Shown piece after piece: positions 20,108 to 61,933 of a stretch of 64,000 nucleotides of DNA. The position numbers were made by a program, and so were the translations under genes. This DNA comes from a virus. The stretch's first letter is position 1; each line of letters starts with the position of its first letter. Under the pieces are notes generated by a model that saw nothing but the letters and a program-made list of their open reading frames with translations, was not told the DNA's origin and searched no databases. The stretch covers positions 1-64,000 of IMG/VR virus record IMGVR_UViG_3300030117_005585. One strand, 5' to 3'.

Positions 20108-23100
20108 CTATACGAACTTTAACATTCCTAATATTTGATTTGCCGGTGCAAATGCACCTGTATATTTATACAACTTTCCTTTAAACATAAAAGTTACACC
20201 CTCTGTTGGAACCACAGCCTTTAACCCACCTATGGCGTTTAATCTGTCCAACTGAGTTTTTAGTGTATACAATACTTTTGGGTCTTTAGAAGTTCTTACT
20301 TTTGAAATAGCCTTAGCTAAATCACTACGAATTTTTTGAACTGCTTGATTGGGATTAGCAGCAATAAAGTCGGATATATTTGACAGAACTTCAGCACCCA
20401 ACTCAAAGAAAAGAACTTCCCAATCTCTGATATGTTTCTTTTGTAACTTTGCATGGTCTAGTTTATCGGTTTTCAAAACCCAATTTAAAAACTTTGGATA
20501 CTTTTCTAAATCTTTTCTTATCTGTGGAATCTTATATGACTTATCGAAAAATGCCCACCTTTTTGTAAGTTTAACAAGCACATTGTTTACTGGATTCGGA
20601 TAATCTGTTTGCTTAGCACCATTGAAGATGTATTCCATCCAATACGCTTGATGATAATCGGCTAATGTATCACTGTCATTTAAATCGTACTGACTTTGTA
20701 ACTTTTTTAATTTATTTAAAAAATAACTTTGTTTATTACTGAAATCTTTTACTTTAGGTAATTTAGTCAAAAAAGGTCCTGTTACACTGAATGTCTTTTG
20801 TACATTTTGATTGATTTGTTTTATCATACCAGCTAAAACTCTGGCACTACCACTATCTGAACCAATTGGTGTACCGTTAGCATCGTATTCTATTGTTCCA
20901 TGAAACTGAAGTAGTGACTTATCATATGGTATTACATTTGATGTCGCTGGATAGATTATCTCTAATGACATAAACTTCTTACCATTACCAAATATTTTGT
21001 CTTTCTGTTTTTCATTCAATCCGCCTATAGCTTTCTGTAAATCAGTCATAGCATAAACAAATGCTTTTTCAATATCACCTCTACCACTGAACATACTTTT
21101 CACACCATTGATATCTAATGAAGCTGCTCCAAAGTTTTTCAAATGTCCTTTGTTTCTAGCAGCTCTTAGTTTACCATTCTTCCAAGTAACCATAATGTTT
21201 TGCCCATCTGTTTTTTCTGCAACTTGTCCTTCATTGTTTAGTTTACCTTGAAGTGTATTAATAATTAGTGTTTTAAAATCCCCAAATGTCAAATTTCTGT
21301 TATCAAAGGGATGATTTAGGTGTCCATAAGCTCCACCCATAAGTAATAACTCCTTTTCTTTACTTCTTTGTTTTAATAAACTTTTTGGATTAATTTGTTC
21401 AAATAAATCTACATCGTAAGAATCTCCATCAGCACCAGCTGCAAATAGTGTACCGATTATATTATCAATAGCAGATTCTGTTCCCATCCAACTAACTACT
21501 TCCCAACCTAATGGCTCCACAACACTACTCATCCAAGTTTTGTAATTATTGACGGCTTTGTTTGAACCCTTCGCCTGTCCATGATCTAAGTAAGAAAGAG
21601 GTACGGATGTGTAGTGTTTTTCGCCTGTCTTTCTTCTTTTATGTACATCATCTGCTTTTGCAACATTATCTTCGGGTTTGATAATCCCATCTCTGTACAT
21701 ATAATCTATGACTGTCCATCCTGTATCTGAGTATAGGGAATCCAACCACTCTTTTGATACCTTTTCGTAAGCACCTAAACTTTGATAATATGTAGAAGGC
21801 CCATCATCTAAGTTACCAGCAGGTGTGCCTGTTGATTCAATTAAAAATTCTTTGATTAATTCATCTGACAATGTGTAGGTTTCGAATAACTTTTTAAATT
21901 TGTTAGTCATCATATTATAAATGCCCCTATCGAAGTAACCGAAAACATCTCTAAATCTTTTCTGTCTTTCACTATCATCAACCATTGGACTACCCAATAA
22001 CTCTCTGGCTTTTGTACCACTAATACTTCCCTGCTGTGGTGCAGTAAGAATGTACCCATGTTCATCAAATCCTTTCATATCTGTTGTATACGGTTTGAAA
22101 TATTTACCACCTAATCTACCCGCATCTTTTTCTCCAACAACATATACAACTGCCGTAGTCTCAGGGTCATATTTTTTCAATAAGTTTTTTGCTACATACG
22201 GAGACTTCTCCATCACAATACGATTTTTCGGTACACCCATTTTAGTCATATGTCGTACCTTTTCTTTGAAACCCATTGGATGTCTTGGTGGTTGTTTAAT
22301 ATCTGATGTAGTTATAAAAGCATCATCCACTCTACCCTTAAGCCATTTGAATGTTGCTAGATGACCTTTATGAAATGGTTGGAAACGACCACCATATATA
22401 CCAATAACTTTTTTTATTTTTTGTTCTTTCAAATTAGACGCACTACTCTCATTTTCTATAATAGAAGCTACGAAATTTTTACTATACAAGTCAAGTACTT
22501 CTTTTATTTTTTTATATCCACTACCATAAGGAACTGAGGTGTTACCTTTTCTCTTCATCTTCTTTACCATCTTACGACTTGGTGATGGTAGTGTACCGGC
22601 AGGTGCTCCAAACTCTTCGTTCTTCTTTTTGGTTTTCTTTTTCATCTTATTGATGTATGCTCTATAGACAGCTGCTTGCGAACTTTTACCCATCTCTCTA
22701 GCTCTCTGTTCCATAGCGACAGCAGCTTGTATCTTATGTGCGTGTGATTTACCACTGCTCTTTATCTTATTTACAGAAGCTCGAGCATCTTTTACTGTGG
22801 CAAACTTCAACCCTTTGATAGTACCTTTAGGATTTTCATCTGTGTATAAATCTGAATGAGATTTTGAACCTCTGTGTTGTCCTTTTTTACGAGGTACGCG
22901 TGGAGCTTCATTTACTTTTTTCACCACTCTGAATTTCAATGCAGGTCTGCCATTGATAAGTAAGTCACCATTGTCATTGAAATTAATGGTTTTAACCACT
23001 ACTTTTTTATTCTTAAATCTACCCATAAGAATAGTATCACCTATTTCTACAGGTATTTTTATATCTTCTACCAGAAAAGGTTTTGTAAGGTATTTAGTGA

Positions 23101-23110
23101 GTTTTTTCAT
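20108..23110 (-). CDS. NMN adenylyltransferase fused to ligase-like nucleotidyltransferase
   Basis: This 1,000-residue multidomain protein has several parts. Residues ~90-170 resemble small phage helical modules (GKSHAHKIQAAVAMEQRARE). Residues ~235-390 form a nucleotidylyltransferase with GRFQPFHKGHLATF (HxGH) and ISGTKARELL (the ISxTxxR-type motif), as in NadM/NMNAT. From ~600 a covalent nucleotidyltransferase-like domain follows: 'AEKTDGQNIMVTW' (motif I Lys), FMSLEIIYP (motif III-like), EGVTFMFKG (motif IV-like) and GKLYKYTGAF (motif V-like). That is the layout of DUF6267-type proteins in marine phages, related to RNA/DNA ligases. It would make NAD from NMN and perhaps adenylylate a nucleic acid end. 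It is the largest gene upstream of the packaging block and has a good AT-rich element before it. Confidence 0.65.
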   Translation of the reverse strand: MKKLTKYLTKPFLVEDIKIPVEIGDTILMGRFKNKKVVVKTINFNDNGDLLINGRPALKFRVVKKVNEAPRVPRKKGQHRGSKSHSDLYTDENPKGTIKGLKFATVKDARASVNKIKSSGKSHAHKIQAAVAMEQRAREMGKSSQAAVYRAYINKMKKKTKKKNEEFGAPAGTLPSPSRKMVKKMKRKGNTSVPYGSGYKKIKEVLDLYSKNFVASIIENESSASNLKEQKIKKVIGIYGGRFQPFHKGHLATFKWLKGRVDDAFITTSDIKQPPRHPMGFKEKVRHMTKMGVPKNRIVMEKSPYVAKNLLKKYDPETTAVVYVVGEKDAGRLGGKYFKPYTTDMKGFDEHGYILTAPQQGSISGTKARELLGSPMVDDSERQKRFRDVFGYFDRGIYNMMTNKFKKLFETYTLSDELIKEFLIESTGTPAGNLDDGPSTYYQSLGAYEKVSKEWLDSLYSDTGWTVIDYMYRDGIIKPEDNVAKADDVHKRRKTGEKHYTSVPLSYLDHGQAKGSNKAVNNYKTWMSSVVEPLGWEVVSWMGTESAIDNIIGTLFAAGADGDSYDVDLFEQINPKSLLKQRSKEKELLLMGGAYGHLNHPFDNRNLTFGDFKTLIINTLQGKLNNEGQVAEKTDGQNIMVTWKNGKLRAARNKGHLKNFGAASLDINGVKSMFSGRGDIEKAFVYAMTDLQKAIGGLNEKQKDKIFGNGKKFMSLEIIYPATSNVIPYDKSLLQFHGTIEYDANGTPIGSDSGSARVLAGMIKQINQNVQKTFSVTGPFLTKLPKVKDFSNKQSYFLNKLKKLQSQYDLNDSDTLADYHQAYWMEYIFNGAKQTDYPNPVNNVLVKLTKRWAFFDKSYKIPQIRKDLEKYPKFLNWVLKTDKLDHAKLQKKHIRDWEVLFFELGAEVLSNISDFIAANPNQAVQKIRSDLAKAISKVRTSKDPKVLYTLKTQLDRLNAIGGLKAVVPTEGVTFMFKGKLYKYTGAFAPANQILGMLKFV

Positions 23111-52972: not shown

Positions 52973-53229
52973 TACTGTTGTTCTCCTCTAAAGTTATCTA
53001 ATTGTTTTATTATATTTTTTATTTCATCAAAGATTACACCTGTTTCATCATCAGATTCAAATGAACCTCTGTAATCTATTTTTTTCAAATCAAATTGAAT
53101 TTTTTCTACTGCTTCCATAAAATTTGAAACCCAATCTTCTAACATTTCTTGTTTGAGATTTAAATTCCATATCACATAACAAGATGTTAAAAACAGTAAG
53201 GTTACAATTGTAAAAGATACTTCTAACAT
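52972..53229 (-). CDS. Small N-anchored membrane protein
   Basis: This 85-residue protein has an N-terminal membrane segment (VSFTIVTLLFLTSCYVIW) and an acidic helical tail. Its stop and start overlap the gp55 and HD genes by one base each, so all are co-translated. Similar small membrane proteins lie next to gp55 in marine T4-like phages. A Cys within the hydrophobic segment is not in a clear lipobox. Function unknown. Confidence 0.65.
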   Translation of the reverse strand: MLEVSFTIVTLLFLTSCYVIWNLNLKQEMLEDWVSNFMEAVEKIQFDLKKIDYRGSFESDDETGVIFDEIKNIIKQLDNFRGEQQ

Positions 53230-54005
53230 TACTTGGTTTCTCCAAAGAGTTCATCAAAAAGGTCTTGTGACTTAGAACTCAGTTTAGGTGATGGTTCAGA
53301 TTTCTTCTCTCCGTTAACCGCTTTCTTCATATTCGTAGTAAGGTTTGTATTATAGTCTTCATCTGCTCGTTTCCATTCGTCACCTTCGATGTGTGTTGCC
53401 ATCATATCGGCTTGATGAAGTATGTATGCTATATTGGATTTCAACGCCCAATCAGGATTGTAACTAAGGTAGTAGGTTTTATTTGCTTCCTCATACAAAC
53501 CATCAGTTAAACGTAATCCGATATATTCCCATTGTGTCATTGGAATACCGAAGTGATTTAAAAGAAAAATAGCTCGGTCGGTAACAGACATATATTGAAG
53601 TTTCGGATTGTGTTTGAATATCTCACCTCTATTCTTACGATGCCATTCGGAGTCTTGTGGTATATAATAATCTTCATCTAAATCACCAACCTTACCTAAG
53701 TCGTGATGCATAGCAGCGAAGATAAGTTCCTCATCGGTGAAGTTGATGGTGGCTCCATTTTTCTCCCACAGCTCTTTGATTTGAAGAGCTGAATCAACTA
53801 CATGCAACACATGCTCTACATAACCACCTACCATAGCATTGTGATAAGCTGCCTTACCACTGGCTGGTGCTACTGACATTCTATCTTCAAAGTAGACATA
53901 CATAGTCTTAAGCTTTTTTAATCTATCTCCTTCGAATGTATCTTCTATAAGTTTCATTAACTTATTCCAATTCTCTACTATTTGTTGTTCTGAAAGTTGT
54001 TTCAT
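53229..54005 (-). CDS. HD-domain phosphohydrolase
   Basis: This 258-residue protein has HD-domain metal ligands: GGYVEHVLHV (first His), AAMHHDLGKVGD (HD ~108-109) and a late Asp in 'AYILHQADMMATHIEGDEW'. HD enzymes hydrolyse phosphate esters such as nucleotides, cyclic dinucleotides or RNA ends. The sequence alone does not reveal the substrate. A C-terminal Ser/Lys linker and the short tail 'SKSQDLFDELFGE' may be a partner-binding peptide. It overlaps neighbours by 1-4 bases in the gp55 operon. Confidence 0.75.
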   Translation of the reverse strand: MKQLSEQQIVENWNKLMKLIEDTFEGDRLKKLKTMYVYFEDRMSVAPASGKAAYHNAMVGGYVEHVLHVVDSALQIKELWEKNGATINFTDEELIFAAMHHDLGKVGDLDEDYYIPQDSEWHRKNRGEIFKHNPKLQYMSVTDRAIFLLNHFGIPMTQWEYIGLRLTDGLYEEANKTYYLSYNPDWALKSNIAYILHQADMMATHIEGDEWKRADEDYNTNLTTNMKKAVNGEKKSEPSPKLSSKSQDLFDELFGETK

Positions 54006-54322: not shown

Positions 54323-55660
54323 TTATCTAACCTCATAACCGCTTTTTGTTAATTTAATTGTTGGTTCTTCTCTAAGTCTATTTCTATAGATGTCAAAAGG
54401 TATTCCTCTACCCCAACCAAGATAATCCATAATTTGTTCTTTAGTTACCGAGCCAACTTTGTGAATGTAATTTAATATTTTGTTATAACCATCTGTATCT
54501 TTTTTTACTTTTTTGAATTTCTCTTCCGCTCTTACAAAATGACTATTATACTTTTTTATAATATTTTCCCACGAGTTTTCTTTTCCTAATTCTATACACC
54601 TATTGGAATATTCTTCTCTTAGATTTTCGTTATCTAACATCATATTCATCTTCTTTAGAAACTCTTCATCTTTATCAAAATAAATACCAGCATTCTCAGC
54701 ATACTGTGAATAGTAGTCAGCATTGTAGAATATATAAGGTACACCAACTGCCATACCATCAGAAGCAGAGTTAGCCCAACCCGTATGGTGTGATTGTCCA
54801 CACACACCAACCCAACATTTAGATAACTCTGTAAAGTAACCTTGTCTATCAAATTTTTTATTGTAGATATACTCTCTATCTATTGAGTCTGATAAAGGAA
54901 CCCATGCCGTAAAGTCTTTTCTCTGTTCCCATAATTTATCAATCTGTTGTAGAAACCAAGGATAACTTTTATAACTATTAGCCCTATGATTCCAAACTAT
55001 TATCTTTGGTTCTTTTTGTGGTTTCTTTCGTGGGCCTTCTACATTATCCCAACCACGTGGTAGTGGTTCTATCTTATCTTTCAATATCTCCACATCACTA
55101 TCTGGCAAGCAAGTCGGTGCGTTCTCTATTATAGTATCTTTCACTGCTTGTGAGTTAACACCACAACTGTTCATAGACATCAAACCAGCATAGTGCTGTC
55201 TAAGTAAACTAGCTTCATAACCAGTAGTCTTTGGTATTTCTATATATGCATCGTAACCAAATATTACAGGTCTGCAGTTAGTCAAATTTCTAAAATGATT
55301 CTCCAACTGTAATGTATGTTCTGGCAAATATGTATATAAAAAATCCCAATCTTTAGTTTTGAAATCAGTTATTTTAGATAACTGATAAGTATCAAAATGT
55401 TGTCTCATCTCATTTGGATATGTAGGTTGTTTGTAGATAATCTGTTCAGTATTTTCATATTGAAAGCCTGGCATAATTTCAGGAGTTAATACTACAAAAA
55501 ATATATCCGGCCTTAACTTTGTTAAATGTTTTAAAATGTTAGACATTATTATGTAGTAACTATCCTTAGTAAAATCTTTTTGAAAGGTTATATTAGGATA
55601 AACTAAACATCTAAAAGGATATTCTCTATCCTCATCGGTATCTTGAAAGAAGTTGTTCAT
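54323..55660 (-). CDS. GT-B glycosyltransferase with winged-helix-like C-terminus
   Basis: This 445-residue protein has two Rossmann-like halves. The second half has a donor-site pattern: PKIIVWNHRANSYKSYPWFL, then 'FTELSKCWVGVCGQSHHTGW' and SASDGMAVGVPYIFYNADYY, as in GT4-type enzymes. The last ~55 residues (ILNYIHKVGSVTKEQIMDYL...) look like a winged helix, which suggests DNA binding. Phage GT-B enzymes often glycosylate modified bases in phage DNA. No hydroxymethylase is visible in the window. It starts one base into the ParB-like gene's stop, and the three genes to 58.1 kb look like one unit. A wall-glycan role is an alternative. Confidence 0.7.
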   Translation of the reverse strand: MNNFFQDTDEDREYPFRCLVYPNITFQKDFTKDSYYIIMSNILKHLTKLRPDIFFVVLTPEIMPGFQYENTEQIIYKQPTYPNEMRQHFDTYQLSKITDFKTKDWDFLYTYLPEHTLQLENHFRNLTNCRPVIFGYDAYIEIPKTTGYEASLLRQHYAGLMSMNSCGVNSQAVKDTIIENAPTCLPDSDVEILKDKIEPLPRGWDNVEGPRKKPQKEPKIIVWNHRANSYKSYPWFLQQIDKLWEQRKDFTAWVPLSDSIDREYIYNKKFDRQGYFTELSKCWVGVCGQSHHTGWANSASDGMAVGVPYIFYNADYYSQYAENAGIYFDKDEEFLKKMNMMLDNENLREEYSNRCIELGKENSWENIIKKYNSHFVRAEEKFKKVKKDTDGYNKILNYIHKVGSVTKEQIMDYLGWGRGIPFDIYRNRLREEPTIKLTKSGYEVR

Positions 55661-56928
55661 TATTTAATTTCGAGAGGATTTTTAGAATTTATAACTACTT
55701 TACCACTTGACTTTTCATACCATTCTCCAACTAAAATTTTAGATGTTGGATTATGATATAAAGCAGGCAAACCCATTTTACAACCTCTCCATTTTCCACC
55801 GACAGGTCTCCAATCTTCTTTTTTTACATATGCTAAAATTACTACTACTCTATCAACATTATCTTCATAACCAATAAATACTGTCCAAGCATCTCTTTCA
55901 GTATCAGCGCCTGTTGAAAATTTGGTTAGAGAGGGGTTATCAGTAATTTTACTTGCTTTAATTTCCATAGAATCGAAAAACAGAGGAAAGAACCAATCTG
56001 GATCATTTACTGATGTTGATGTTTCAACTTTTAAATTAGGGTTTACCATCTCTATACATTCCCCACCAATAATCATAAATTGGTCGGATACTAATCCACT
56101 TCTTGTTTTTGTTTCAAGTTTTGGGCCAGGTGTAATAATTTTCTTCTTACCATTGTGAGCCAATCCAATTTCTATTTTATCATGTTGATGAATATAATTT
56201 CTAACAGCAATACAAGTCATTAAAGCCATTTCTGTAGTATATATACTCTCAAAATCAGTATTTCCTTGATATTGTGGAGTATTAACTTTTTTTGGAGTTG
56301 GTGGAAATAACAAATCAAAAGCTTTTGAATATTTCATACCATCATCTATTTTTTTTAAATATGTCTGCCCCTGATTATGTTTACCAATTCTCCAAAGCTT
56401 TTTTATATAAGTCAAAGATTTATTAGAATCATCTTTCCATAAATAGTCATAAATTGATTCAATATTTATTTTATCTTTTCCTTTTACTAATCTCATTTTT
56501 TCATGTACTAACTTTATCTGATTAAAAGTTCTAACTGCACTGTCTTTACGAACTCTTGAAGCTGCTTCCAACACTTGAATTGCATTTAAAGGATCGCTTA
56601 AATCTAAGTCAGTTTCATATTCAGTAATCTTCATCCAATTATGATCTTCGCCGGTATCCTTATCAATACCATTATGAAAACTATCTCTTGTTTCTTTCTT
56701 CTCAAACCACCTAGTATGGCCAGAAACCACAGTTCCAGCAGGATAAGGACCATTTTTCTTTTTCAAAACTGATGGTGGATGTATTAAACCAACTCCATTG
56801 TCAATTGTTTCTGATATATGTTGCGTATCATACTCATTACTTTGCCAATCGTCATTCAATGCGTGTTTCTTTAGAGAATCTATATGTGCATATAAAACAC
56901 CGTCTATAACTTTTGTTTCGTATTTCAT
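55660..56928 (-). CDS. ParB-like domain protein with possible PD-(D/E)XK region
   Basis: This 422-residue protein begins with a ParB/Srx-type domain (~1-80): 'HIDSLKKHALNDDWQSNEYD', a 'IHPPSVLKK' strand, and the box VVSGHTRWFEKKE (~68-79), equivalent to the GERR motif. The centre is helical. The C-terminal ~170 residues have a nuclease-like order, with an acidic strand followed by DSMEIKAS (~316-324) and 'AWTVFIGYEDNVDRVVVILA'. That could be a PD-(D/E)XK core with E-x-K, as in restriction enzymes. If so it may read DNA and cut it. Lying between the glycosyltransferase and DUF4338-like genes, it fits a DNA-modification or discrimination unit. The nuclease call is tentative. Confidence 0.55.
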   Translation of the reverse strand: MKYETKVIDGVLYAHIDSLKKHALNDDWQSNEYDTQHISETIDNGVGLIHPPSVLKKKNGPYPAGTVVSGHTRWFEKKETRDSFHNGIDKDTGEDHNWMKITEYETDLDLSDPLNAIQVLEAASRVRKDSAVRTFNQIKLVHEKMRLVKGKDKINIESIYDYLWKDDSNKSLTYIKKLWRIGKHNQGQTYLKKIDDGMKYSKAFDLLFPPTPKKVNTPQYQGNTDFESIYTTEMALMTCIAVRNYIHQHDKIEIGLAHNGKKKIITPGPKLETKTRSGLVSDQFMIIGGECIEMVNPNLKVETSTSVNDPDWFFPLFFDSMEIKASKITDNPSLTKFSTGADTERDAWTVFIGYEDNVDRVVVILAYVKKEDWRPVGGKWRGCKMGLPALYHNPTSKILVGEWYEKSSGKVVINSKNPLEIK

Positions 56929-56949
56929 TTATTATTTCCTAATTGTTAA

Positions 56950-58143
56950 TTATCTACCTACTTCTGATAGGTACATTTCTTTAGTTTCTTCCCAAGTCTT
57001 TCCTACGATATCTCCGTAGAAAAGTTTTTCAGGCTTCAATCTATTTTCGTCAAATAATTTACTGTATCTTCTGATAGCTTTAGGTTTCCACCAATTAATA
57101 ATGTAATCGCTATCATCACTATACTTTTTCTTCATCTTCAAATCTTTTTCTTCTATCTCTCCACGCAAAAACTCTCTACCATTTTCATATATGTCAGCGT
57201 AGAAGATACCTCTTTTAAATCCATGTTGGTAATCAGAACCCTTCACACCAACTGCTTTAAAAATCATATTAATTGTTTTTTGTTTCACACCTGTAGGAGG
57301 ACCGGCAACCCCTTCTTTTTGAGTAGTTTGTCTAAGGTACTCATCTTTTTGGTTTTCTTTCAACCACTGATGCCATACATCATAAGTGGAATCATCAGGC
57401 TTCAGTGCTATTCTACCTTTAGACTCACCAAGTGTTTTCCAAAGTGGAATACTGTTATACATTGAGTGTATGCCGTATAGGGATGTGGTTGATGCTCCTA
57501 CTAAGGTCTGACCATAAGTCTCTTTCCAAGCATCTCTAACTACTGATGATGTTACGAAACAAGCCACCAACTTACCACCTAAGAAATTGAATCCCAATGG
57601 TTGAGCACAACATATCGTTGTACCTATGGAAGTATATTTAAGTTTACCATCTTTAAATTTATTTTCTTTTGTCCATCCAATATAGTTATCTCTGGCACCT
57701 AATGAAGTAACATCTGAACCCATACAAACAATTCCTAATATTTTGCCAGTTACTTTATCTTTCAAATAAAACTTTAGGTTTCTGCCAGGGTTAGCAGTAA
57801 ACTCCATAGTGTGAATCAACCTACGAACTAATGTCCACTCTTCATTGTGTTTAGCATTACCTTGTTCTGTCATTTCTAAGTAAGGTTCTAATGCTTCGAT
57901 TTCTTTTATGGTTTGTTCTTTATTATTTATATCAGTAGGTGTCCAAATAGACTTTTCTATCTTAGAGAACTGAGTTGCTTTCTGAGTCATAGAGTAAACA
58001 TCAGCATTAAACTCTTGCCATTTCTTATATAGTGTTTGTTCTTGTACAGACATAGACTTTAGAAAGTCTAAGTTATCGATAAACTTCTTGCGTTCAGCTT
58101 CGAAGTCAAATTGTGGCTCGTCAAAAAAATTGTTAAAACCCAT
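56950..58143 (-). CDS. DUF4338/DruA-like protein, possible DNA-modifying GNAT-type enzyme
   Basis: This 397-residue protein has a core (~115-245) that resembles DUF4338, the family of Druantia DruA. It includes GRNLKFYLKDKVTGKILGIV, then 'SLGARDNYIGW', a 'YTSIGTTICCAQPLGFNFLG' block and 'LVGASTTSLYGIHSMYNSIP', ending 'LWKTLGESKGR'. These match the ARDxxIGW, long helix and 'xxYxAANWxxLGxTxGR' steps of that family by eye. Related Mom-type proteins modify adenine in phage DNA. Here a role in phage DNA modification or in counter-defence is possible. It heads the three-gene block, 51 bases downstream of tRNA-Gly. Confidence 0.5.
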   Translation of the reverse strand: MGFNNFFDEPQFDFEAERKKFIDNLDFLKSMSVQEQTLYKKWQEFNADVYSMTQKATQFSKIEKSIWTPTDINNKEQTIKEIEALEPYLEMTEQGNAKHNEEWTLVRRLIHTMEFTANPGRNLKFYLKDKVTGKILGIVCMGSDVTSLGARDNYIGWTKENKFKDGKLKYTSIGTTICCAQPLGFNFLGGKLVACFVTSSVVRDAWKETYGQTLVGASTTSLYGIHSMYNSIPLWKTLGESKGRIALKPDDSTYDVWHQWLKENQKDEYLRQTTQKEGVAGPPTGVKQKTINMIFKAVGVKGSDYQHGFKRGIFYADIYENGREFLRGEIEEKDLKMKKKYSDDSDYIINWWKPKAIRRYSKLFDENRLKPEKLFYGDIVGKTWEETKEMYLSEVGR

Positions 58144-58195
58144 TTTAATTCCTGTTAATTTTCAATAGTTAAATAGCCTAGCTGGCCAAAAGTTG

Positions 58196-58267
58196 AGCGG
58201 AGGGTAGGAGTCGAACCTACATCTCTTCTTTGGAAAAGAAGTGTGTTTCCTATAACACTTCCCCCGC
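58196..58267 (-). tRNA. tRNA-Gly, anticodon UCC
   Basis: 72 bases fold as a full cloverleaf: acceptor GCGGGGG/CCTCCGC with one G-T pair, D stem GTGT/ACAC, anticodon stem CTTCT/AGAAG with loop TTTCCAA (anticodon TCC), and T arm GTAGG TTCGACT CCTAC. CCA is not encoded. It reads GGA and is wobble-capable for other Gly codons. It sits between the acidic protein gene and the DUF4338-like gene and matches the AT-rich, GGA-using coding style. Confidence 0.93.
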
Positions 58268-59001: not shown

Positions 59002-59514
59002 TTAGAAATCACCTGGCGCTACCTGAAATGTATTTAGTCCTAAATCTCTCCACATTTTGACAACTTTATCTCTGTCATCTACAACAAGAAATACATCATC
59101 AATATCTACAAAAGCATCTAACATTTTTCTTTTCAAAATTTCATCAGGTGCGAATCTCCAATTTGAAACTGCGGGATTACCGGCAGCTACAGGAAAATCA
59201 TCCTTCTGATATTTGTCTGGTCTCATAACCAATAAGTCGTAAGGTACATCATTCCACTCTAACCATTCTTTTGTCCTATCAAACATTCTATCATTTCTGC
59301 CTGAAAATATAACAATCTTAAATCCATCTTGTTTGAACAACTGAGCCATTTTTATTACTGGCTCATTTGGTTCATCGAATGCTATATGGGCTGGATTGAA
59401 AAACTCATTCCAATTCATCTTACCATTTTTACCCATTTTGAGTGCATGGTCTCTTCGTCTATCTATGTTAGCCAGAGTACCATCTAAATCGAATATGACT
59501 GTATTTTTGTCCAT
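59002..59514 (-). CDS. HAD-family 3'-phosphatase-like (Pnk phosphatase domain)
   Basis: This 170-residue protein has HAD motif I FDLDGTLAN (~8-16), motif II VIFSGRND (~68-75) and motif IV VVDDRDKVVKMWRDLGL. The ending QVAPGDF matches the C-terminal phosphatase domain of T4 polynucleotide kinase. The N-terminal kinase P-loop is absent, so it would act only as a 3'-phosphatase, possibly on RNA ends in tRNA repair with a separate ligase. The ligase-like domain at 20 kb is a possible partner. It lies within the host-takeover region. Confidence 0.8.
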   Translation of the reverse strand: MDKNTVIFDLDGTLANIDRRRDHALKMGKNGKMNWNEFFNPAHIAFDEPNEPVIKMAQLFKQDGFKIVIFSGRNDRMFDRTKEWLEWNDVPYDLLVMRPDKYQKDDFPVAAGNPAVSNWRFAPDEILKRKMLDAFVDIDDVFLVVDDRDKVVKMWRDLGLNTFQVAPGDF

Positions 59515-60312: not shown

Positions 60313-60329
60313 TTTTTTCCTAAAGGTTG

Positions 60330-60738
60330 TGGAGCTGAGGGGAGTCGAACCCCTGTCCAAGTAGTTTTCTTCAATAAGTCATTTACAGCTTAGCTGGTTT
60401 CCATCGGTAGAAACCAGCAAACAACCATGTGGATTCCTTTTACTCAGAACATACCCTTTAACTGATATACTTTATACTCGCATATTAGAGTTGGTGTCTA
60501 ACTCATTTTATGACCGAGTGTTAGACAACTCAGTAACTTATGCAGCGTATGCGTAAGTTGGTTGGTCTTGATTATAAGCAACCATAGGTGAGTAATCATA
60601 CTCAGCTAAATGCCAATCAATTACCAACCCGTCTAGCGATTCATCGCCAATTAGGTTAGTTGAGTTTTATTTAAGAGTCTACTCAAACTCTGCTGCACTT
60701 AATTGTCAAATAACACCTGTCGAAACCATTACAGCCCC
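60330..60738 (-). ncRNA. ssrA: One-piece tmRNA
   Basis: The 5' end GGGGCTGTAATGGTTTCGAC and the 3' end 'GGACAGGGGTTCGACTCCCC' plus TCAGCTCCA are the conserved tmRNA ends. They form the acceptor stem GGGGCTG/CAGCTCC and T arm. The 409-base molecule has a PK1-like pseudoknot (GAGT/ACTC and TTGAGT/ACTCAA) near bases 50-80. A tag reading frame ends GCA TAC GCT GCA TAA, peptide ...TYAYAA, and further hairpins (TGTCTAAC/GTTAGACA and CTGGTTTC/GAAACCAG) follow. CCA is not encoded. It rescues stalled ribosomes by trans-translation and tags proteins for proteolysis. The tag frame is open for 36 codons from the PK1 end. The true resume codon is uncertain. Confidence 0.93.
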
Positions 60739-60986: not shown

Positions 60987-61307
60987 TTATGCGTCAAAAT
61001 GTTTCCAATTTTTTTCAAAATCATCAAATAGATTTTCTAACTTTTTATTCAACTTATTAGAGTCAATCGGATTAACTTCATTTCTTTTTAATTCAAGAGG
61101 TTTTGGATTTAACAGCGTAACTATTGCTGATAACCCTAACGCTTCCAAAATATTAATTGTAGGTAATCCAAATATATTTGGCATTAACCAATTCCAAAGT
61201 AAACATAATGGAATACTCAAAACCATACCAATCAGTAAAAATGAAATCAATGCTACCAACCCCAACTTTAGCATATCCCAATAAAATCCATACTTTAAAT
61301 TTATCAT
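60987..61307 (-). CDS. Small membrane protein
   Basis: This 106-residue protein has two or three hydrophobic segments (LKLGLVALISFLLIGMVLSI; 'IPLCLLWNWLMP'; 'ILEALGLSAIVTLL') and a charged C-terminus. ATG at 61307 has GGGAG before it and overlaps the deformylase stop (ATGA). Phage small membrane proteins often act on host envelope or lysis. No family was recognised. Confidence 0.7.
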   Translation of the reverse strand: MINLKYGFYWDMLKLGLVALISFLLIGMVLSIPLCLLWNWLMPNIFGLPTINILEALGLSAIVTLLNPKPLELKRNEVNPIDSNKLNKKLENLFDDFEKNWKHFDA

Positions 61308-61933
61308 TGTTTTATCTCCCAACCATCATTTAAAAACCTCTGTGATTTTTTGTACTTCAATACTTTTACAGCATCACCTTTTTTAATAGTAACTAATTGA
61401 TTACGACCAATCTTTTTTTCAGTTCTTTTAACTGTAGTTTCTATTCTTCTATCCATAATTAATTTACCATTTAGGTGATCTATTTCGTGTTGAACACAAA
61501 CTGCTTCTAATAGTCTTAACTCCTTATCATTCTTAGATTTCTCTTTATCTTCCCAGCTACCTGTACCAGTTTCACCTGTATCACATCCACTAAATATCCA
61601 ACCACTTTCCGATTGAGCAGTTTTAATCTCTACCGTTTCGTATCGCTTGGTATGTACTCCTTTGCCAGGAAAAGACAAACAACCCTCATAATAATTAATC
61701 TCATCCGTCTTCGATACAACCTTCGGATTGATGAGTACCAAAGGTTCACGAACATTGACAACGGCCACTTGTGCATCAATTCCCACTTGATTAGCTGCCA
61801 GCCCAATACCGTCTTTTCTTTCGTTAAGTATCGAAAATAATTTTGTTGCGATTTCCAATCCTTCTTCAACTGTAACCTCCTTGAGTTTCTTATGAATTAG
61901 AGGGTTATTATCTTTAGTACAATCTACAATCAC
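61304..61933 (-). CDS. def: Peptide deformylase
   Basis: This 209-residue enzyme removes the formyl group from nascent proteins. Motif 1 GIGLAANQVG (~42-51), motif 2 EGCLSFPG (Cys ~85) and motif 3 VQHEIDHLNG (~147-156) give the metal site Cys, His, His and catalytic Glu. A ~30-residue insertion ('SGCDTGETGTGSWEDK...') separates motifs 2 and 3. The C-terminal ~45 residues are Lys-rich beyond the usual core. Phage deformylases are known in marine T4-like phages. It overlaps the membrane gene by four bases and is next to a Lys-rich small protein. Confidence 0.92.
   Translation of the reverse strand: MIVDCTKDNNPLIHKKLKEVTVEEGLEIATKLFSILNERKDGIGLAANQVGIDAQVAVVNVREPLVLINPKVVSKTDEINYYEGCLSFPGKGVHTKRYETVEIKTAQSESGWIFSGCDTGETGTGSWEDKEKSKNDKELRLLEAVCVQHEIDHLNGKLIMDRRIETTVKRTEKKIGRNQLVTIKKGDAVKVLKYKKSQRFLNDGWEIKQ

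What the first reader, a model, noticed from the sequence alone, without database searches (positions are those of the whole stretch)
54323..58143. Glycosyltransferase, ParB-like/nuclease-like and DUF4338-like block
Three genes in tandem: a GT-B enzyme with a winged-helix-like tail, a ParB-like protein with possible PD-(D/E)XK order, and a DruA/Mom-like DUF4338 protein. One enzyme adds sugar, one may read or cut DNA, one may modify DNA. This could be a compact phage modification and self/non-self discrimination system. I have not seen this combination described.
Basis: inference. Interest (0 to 1): 0.75.

Follow-up and report, generated by a model that had tools for sequence, protein, structure and literature searches.

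The report
Phage DNA-modification pair with swappable cargo
Marine T4-like phages carry a conserved pair of genes that probably decorate the phage's own DNA, with an exchangeable slot between them that holds a different DNA-cutting or DNA-marking enzyme in nearly every relative, which would let phages mark themselves and attack rivals.

Summary
They are not one fixed cassette. DruA and the glycosyltransferase (GT) are conserved partners; the ParB-nuclease is one occupant of a hypervariable slot between them. In 79 distinct loci the slot is empty (29) or holds genes from 32 unrelated families: ParB-nucleases, GmrSD-like and EcoRI-family restriction enzymes, DNA methyltransferases, Mom, TET-associated glycosyltransferases. 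A 96-98%-identical relative carries an unrelated gene there, with breakpoints at the DruA stop and GT start codons. Outside these phages, GT still sits beside DruA in bacterial contigs, where a ParB domain is fused to DruA, and in another phage group GT, DruA and two Mom genes lie among DNA-polymerase and clamp-loader genes. Several longer relatives carry 2-3 Mom genes; no hydroxymethylase or TET was found in a 165-kb relative. Best reading: DruA and GT (with Mom) modify the phage's own DNA; the slot carries exchangeable self/non-self weapons. The chemistry is inferred. I found no description of this arrangement in the papers searched.

The parts
56950..58143 (-). DruA/DUF4338-like protein, 397 aa (predicted GNAT-type DNA modifier)
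   Evidence: PF14236 E 3.9e-25; PADLOC DruA; LGGKL and TTS..G..S.Y core largely conserved in an alignment with two annotated bacterial DruA proteins; GNAT assignment of DUF4338 from PMC10853773
55661..56949 (.). hypervariable cargo slot between the DruA stop codon and the GT start codon
   Evidence: DNA similarity to relatives ends at 56948-56952 and resumes at 55606-55667; 32 cargo families or empty in 79 distinct loci
55660..56928 (-). slot occupant here: ParB-domain protein with C-terminal PD-(D/E)XK nuclease motif, 422 aa
   Evidence: profile hit to solved ParB E 7e-7; invariant G70, R73, D309, D311, E322, K324
55957..56004 (-). predicted PD-(D/E)XK catalytic residues D309, D311, E322, K324
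   Evidence: invariant in 7 aligned homologues at about 20% identity; in the 8-member alignment D311, E322 and K324 stay invariant
54323..55660 (-). GT-B (GT4-like) glycosyltransferase with C-terminal winged helix, 445 aa
   Evidence: AlphaFold pLDDT 89 / pTM 0.85; PDB Foldseek E 2e-12; 30-member alignment
54326..54493 (-). winged-helix tail of the GT (residues 390-445)
   Evidence: predicted H390-402, H407-414, H423-429, E435-438, E442-444 at high pLDDT; conserved in the slot-type GTs aligned, absent in the shorter 372-380 aa GTs
53229..54005 (-). HD-domain protein, conserved flank downstream of GT (used as anchor; not claimed as part of the mechanism)
   Evidence: Pfam HD E 0.001, below cut-off; conserved position in relatives

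Best explanation
DruA and the winged-helix GT form a conserved two-gene unit that modifies the phage's own DNA: a GNAT-fold enzyme (DruA, probably with the Mom enzymes encoded elsewhere in these phages) puts a small group on a base, and the GT adds a sugar to it. The slot between them is an exchange site for single- or few-gene restriction or modification modules. In this phage it holds a ParB-PD-(D/E)XK nuclease that most likely cuts DNA lacking, or carrying a different, modification: host DNA or competing phages. Shown: gene content, domains, slot swapping, DruA-GT linkage across unrelated genomes, ParB-DruA fusion, Mom co-occurrence. Inferred: all chemistry, the order of reactions, the nuclease target and the biological benefit.
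For: Slot swap: the relative L010 is collinear at 98% identity up to 56948 and at 96% from 55653 on, with an unrelated gene between; relatives L013, L014, L008 and L005 break at or close to the same edges. Census: 79 distinct loci, 50 occupied with 32 families, 29 empty; at least 30 changes of slot content on a 69-member DruA tree; pairs with DruA 97-98.5% identical can differ in cargo, and GT alleles can be exchanged too. Cargo: EcoRI family E 5e-11 plus D12 methyltransferase E 1e-21, GmrSD_N E 3e-9, ResIII, HNH; Mom E 4e-40, TAGT, GT4; PADLOC methyltransferase and restriction models. By my count 28 of the 50 occupied slots hold at least one recognised restriction or modification gene. Linkage: of 27 GT loci with 5.9 kb or more of upstream flank, 22 have DruA upstream; the other five, L110-L114, form one group, and the two I listed (L110, L114) show a DruA-like ORF downstream past a PolB-like gene (by resemblance). 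In genome contigs every complete GT homologue sits beside DruA, with ParB_N fused to DruA in L189 and L190 (E 3e-11, 2e-9) and in L187 by profile. In a second phage group two Mom genes, GT, PolB, DruA and an AAA clamp-loader-like gene are neighbours. Mom: 2-3 copies in 7 of 14 records, including the near-identical relative G002 and the 165-kb relative G001; in G001 two Mom genes lie beside polymerase-like and clamp-loader-like genes.
Against: No direct evidence that virion DNA is modified. The GT fold is generic GT4, shared with lipid, thiol and polysaccharide enzymes, and marine T4-like phages use many GTs probably on host surfaces (PMC7029224). Some loci have DruA without GT (15 of 79), and the cyanophage and pelagiphage DruA loci inspected lack GT nearby. 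22 of the 50 occupied slots hold only families I could not assign (8 of these are the F1 family, where GIY-YIG and ParB-like motifs are suggestive only). The ParB-like protein has no good structural model. G000 is a 77.8-kb fragment with no Mom in view.
Confidence: 0.58

Rival explanations
1. Slot occupants are free-standing homing-type endonuclease genes that invade the junction between two conserved genes, as GIY-YIG Seg and HNH Mob genes do in T4; the junction is a homing target with no functional link to DruA or GT.
For: HNH, GIY-YIG-like and PD-(D/E)XK domains recur; insertion at precise gene borders; sporadic presence among close relatives.
Against: Much of the cargo is not a nuclease: Mom, methyltransferases, TAGT, and an EcoRI-family enzyme with a D12 methyltransferase. 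The ParB module is fused to DruA beside GT in bacterial contigs, which homing would not predict.
Confidence: 0.13
2. A generic hypervariable region of T4-like genomes: any gene can land there and DruA and GT are only its conserved borders.
For: T4-like genomes have many plastic regions (PMC7029224); 22 of 50 occupied slots hold only unassigned families.
Against: At least 28 of 50 occupied slots carry recognised restriction or modification genes; GT-DruA proximity persists in unrelated genomes and in other orientations.
Confidence: 0.1
3. The GT acts on host or virion surface glycans (superinfection exclusion or host recognition), and DruA is an unrelated neighbour.
For: GT4-like fold; abundant surface-type GTs in marine T4-like phages (PMC7029224); GT alleles diverge quickly.
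Against: Winged-helix tail; persistent adjacency to DruA and placement beside Mom and PolB.
Confidence: 0.12
4. The ParB-like protein is a regulator or sequence-recognition partner of the DruA/Mom enzymes (DndB-like) rather than a weapon; its PD-(D/E)XK part only controls modification.
For: ParB fused to DruA; an annotated ParB-like gene overlaps a Mom-family gene in cultured Microbacterium phage MenE; DndB precedent (PMC10853773).
Against: Intact conserved nuclease residues; the slot is usually filled with unrelated genes or empty, so the ParB-like protein is dispensable for DruA-GT.
Confidence: 0.2

Closest known systems
Druantia defence system (DruA, PF14236)
   Same: DruA protein with core columns conserved
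   Different: no other Druantia component recognised among the neighbours scanned; carried by a phage beside a GT, and by replication genes in other phages
Mom-family DNA modification of phages (Mu Mom; jumbo-phage Mom fused to REase-fold domains, PMC7824862)
   Same: GNAT-type DNA modifiers paired with REase-fold nucleases; Mom occurs in longer relatives and as slot cargo
   Different: DruA belongs to a different Pfam family from Mom; a GT is added; nuclease and modifier are separate genes, the nuclease exchangeable
T4/RB69-type DNA glycosylation (hydroxymethylase plus GT)
   Same: T4-like phages with a GT-B enzyme plausibly acting on DNA
   Different: no PF00303 hydroxymethylase or Tet_JBP found in the 165-kb relative
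GmrSD/BrxU type IV restriction (ParB/Srx-fold domain plus HNH; PMC4619093)
   Same: ParB-superfamily domain fused to a nuclease; GmrSD_N relatives occupy the same slot in other phages
   Different: the window protein does not match PF03235 and carries a PD-(D/E)XK motif instead of HNH
DruA-like proteins of Synechococcus phages (Phold, PMC12774648)
   Same: same phage DruA family
   Different: the passage found reports structural similarity only; no GT, slot or Mom linkage in it

Membership tests
DruA (PF14236) | match above gathering score | tested here: met
   89 bits against 27
Druantia type I system | DruA together with DruB-DruE including a large helicase | tested here: not met
   Pfam/PHROG scans of neighbouring ORFs show GT, HD, PNKP and PDF matches and unassigned proteins, no helicase; more distant ORFs were not all scanned
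ParB N-terminal domain | profile similarity and GHxR box | tested here: met
   E 7e-7 to solved ParB; G70 and R73 invariant; the window protein alone has no Pfam ParB hit
PD-(D/E)XK nuclease | D and E-x-K on a helix/strand core | tested here: inconclusive
   residues invariant and predicted strand at 322-329, but low-confidence fold and no profile hit to a solved nuclease
GT-B glycosyltransferase (GT4-like) | two Rossmann-like domains matching GT4 structures | tested here: met
DNA glycosyltransferase | transfers sugar to DNA | not testable with these tools
   only a winged-helix tail and context
hmC-based glucosylation pathway | dCMP hydroxymethylase or TET in the genome | tested here: not met
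   no PF00303 or PF12851 in G000 or the 165-kb relative G001; for PF12851 no control genome matched, so that absence is weakly supported; G000 is incomplete
GmrSD type IV restriction enzyme | PF03235 domain plus HNH | tested here: not met
   window ParB-like protein: no match
Type II restriction-modification system | nuclease with cognate methyltransferase | tested here: not met
   no methyltransferase match among the neighbouring ORFs scanned; met in relative L017
Mom (PF25680) | match to the Mom profile | tested here: not met
   window DruA matches PF14236 only; Mom absent from G000 as held

The most novel reading that the evidence does not exclude
DruA, ParB and GT are components of an undescribed DNA hypermodification and discrimination system in which a GNAT enzyme (DruA, with Mom) primes a base for a winged-helix GT, and a ParB module, fused to DruA in bacterial contigs or to a nuclease in phages, reads the mark. 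This would also assign a DNA-modifying role to the DruA protein of Druantia.
Probability: 0.35. Interest if true: 0.87.

Novelty: new variant of a known kind. Interest (0 to 1): 0.72.

Why it matters
It gives a testable function for DruA, links it to Mom and glycosyltransferases, and shows T4-like marine phages exchanging restriction and modification genes at a codon-precise slot: a natural catalogue of candidate phage-on-phage weapons and possibly new DNA bases.

Tried and rejected
Fixed three-gene cassette: rejected by cargo swapping. hmC glucosylation: no hydroxymethylase or TET found. AlphaFold of the ParB-like protein failed (pLDDT 47), so no fold search was run on it. F1 cargo as ParB: not established (hhalign probability 8%; Noc E 0.1). 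Window ParB-like and GT proteins find nothing in cultured phages by tblastn. Pfam and PADLOC on the large unknown cargo families F6, F7, F9, F11 and F28: no usable hits. ParB-DruA fusions looked for in viral contigs: close-relative scan none; alignment scan gave DruA loci, none showing a fusion. They are rare in bacteria: 2 of 395 genomes of one phylum matched, one being the query genome. HY126 glycosyltransferase literature: nothing relevant.

Full report
Observation. Three minus-strand genes occupy 54323-58143: DruA-like (56950-58143), ParB-like (55660-56928) and GT (54323-55660), nearly without gaps. The record is a 77,753-base virus record, classed linear, of a T4-like phage (capsid, portal and terminase PHROGs); the best-scoring annotated isolates for capsid and terminase are Microcystis phage Mel-JY01 and Flavobacterium phages immuto, at 50-55% identity. 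The host is unknown.

Domains. DruA matches PF14236 and keeps core columns in common with annotated bacterial DruA proteins; DUF4338 is described as a GNAT domain in PMC10853773. The GT is a confident GT-B model with a C-terminal winged helix. The ParB-like protein has no family hit alone, but a profile of seven homologues finds solved ParB structures at E 7e-7, even without the one member that matches Pfam ParB_N. G70/R73 of the ParB box and D309/D311/E322/K324 are invariant among the seven. Its own predicted structure is poor, so the nuclease assignment rests on motif and order.

The slot. Viral relatives found through DruA and GT show the order DruA - cargo - GT - HD. Against the near-identical relative L010, DNA similarity (98%) ends at 56948, at the DruA stop codon, and returns (96%) at 55653, at the GT start, with an unrelated gene between; other relatives break at or near the same borders. 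Among 79 distinct loci, 50 are occupied by 32 families and 29 are empty; 64 have GT and 15 do not. Slot content changes at least 30 times on a tree of 69 DruA proteins. Pairs with nearly identical DruA can differ in cargo, and GT can change allele with it: L061 and L062 have DruA 98.5%, HD 86% and GT 52% identical.

Cargo. Recognised occupants are ParB-nucleases like the window's, GmrSD_N proteins with C-terminal HNH-type motifs (motifs read from the sequences; Pfam), an EcoRI-family enzyme with a D12 methyltransferase, other methyltransferases (and DPPY motifs), HNH and ResIII proteins, Mom (PF25680 E 4e-40), TAGT and a GT4 enzyme. By my count 28 of 50 occupied slots contain at least one of these. 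F1 cargo shows an invariant Y..Y.G..E..N pattern suggestive of GIY-YIG, unconfirmed.

Linkage of GT and DruA. Of 27 GT loci with at least 5.9 kb upstream, 22 have DruA upstream; the other five form one group, and the two I listed show a DruA-like ORF downstream past a PolB-like gene, with Mom-like ORFs upstream of GT (both by resemblance to the L034 arrangement). In genome contigs every complete GT homologue lies next to a DruA homologue, in different orientations. In L189 and L190 that DruA carries a fused ParB_N domain, and in L187 the window-type ParB profile matches the N-terminus; integrase or invertase matches lie nearby in L189 and L190. L186 is a short contig that may be a phage. In another phage group Mom, Mom, a 610-aa protein, GT, PolB, a 231-aa protein, DruA and an AAA clamp-loader-like gene are consecutive.

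Acceptor chemistry. No thymidylate-synthase-type hydroxymethylase and no TET were found in G000 or the 165-kb relative G001. Mom-family genes are present in 2-3 copies in seven of fourteen records, including G002, the near-identical relative of the window, and G001, where two lie among polymerase-like and clamp-loader-like genes. They are absent from the held part of G000. I therefore infer a GNAT-primed, GT-extended base modification, probably coupled to replication. This is inference; I found no assay of it.

Comparison. The arrangement resembles jumbo-phage Mom-REase fusions (PMC7824862) in logic, and GmrSD enzymes (PMC4619093) in the use of a ParB-superfamily domain with a nuclease. DruA-like proteins in cyanophages were noted in PMC12774648. 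I found no paper describing DruA with a GT or the slot; only the open library was searched, so this is a limited negative.

Noticed in passing
window 60327-60738 (-): A tmRNA gene in a T4-like phage, with tag peptide EYDYSPMVAYNQDQPTYAYAA (ARAGORN; Rfam E 4e-41).
   Followed up: partly
window 58195-58267 (-): tRNA-Gly (TCC) just upstream of the DruA gene.
   Followed up: no
window 61304-61933 (-) and 59002-59514 (-): Peptide deformylase and a polynucleotide-kinase-type phosphatase.
   Followed up: no
window 20108-23110 (-): 1000-aa protein with a weak cytidylyltransferase match, a possible sugar-nucleotide enzyme.
   Followed up: no
L017:9329-12783: EcoRI-family restriction enzyme plus D12 methyltransferase and a 518-aa protein in the slot of a T4-like phage.
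   Followed up: partly
L220 (Microbacterium phage MenE) 4484-5636: An annotated ParB-like gene overlaps a Mom-family gene in a cultured phage: a second ParB-GNAT pairing.
   Followed up: partly
L189, L190, L187: ParB-DruA fusion proteins next to a GT in bacterial contigs, with integrase or invertase matches near L189 and L190.
   Followed up: yes
L100:3599-6337 (165-kb relative): 912-aa protein whose start resembles carboxypeptidase-regulatory-like/outer-membrane proteins, beside the polymerase-like gene.
   Followed up: no
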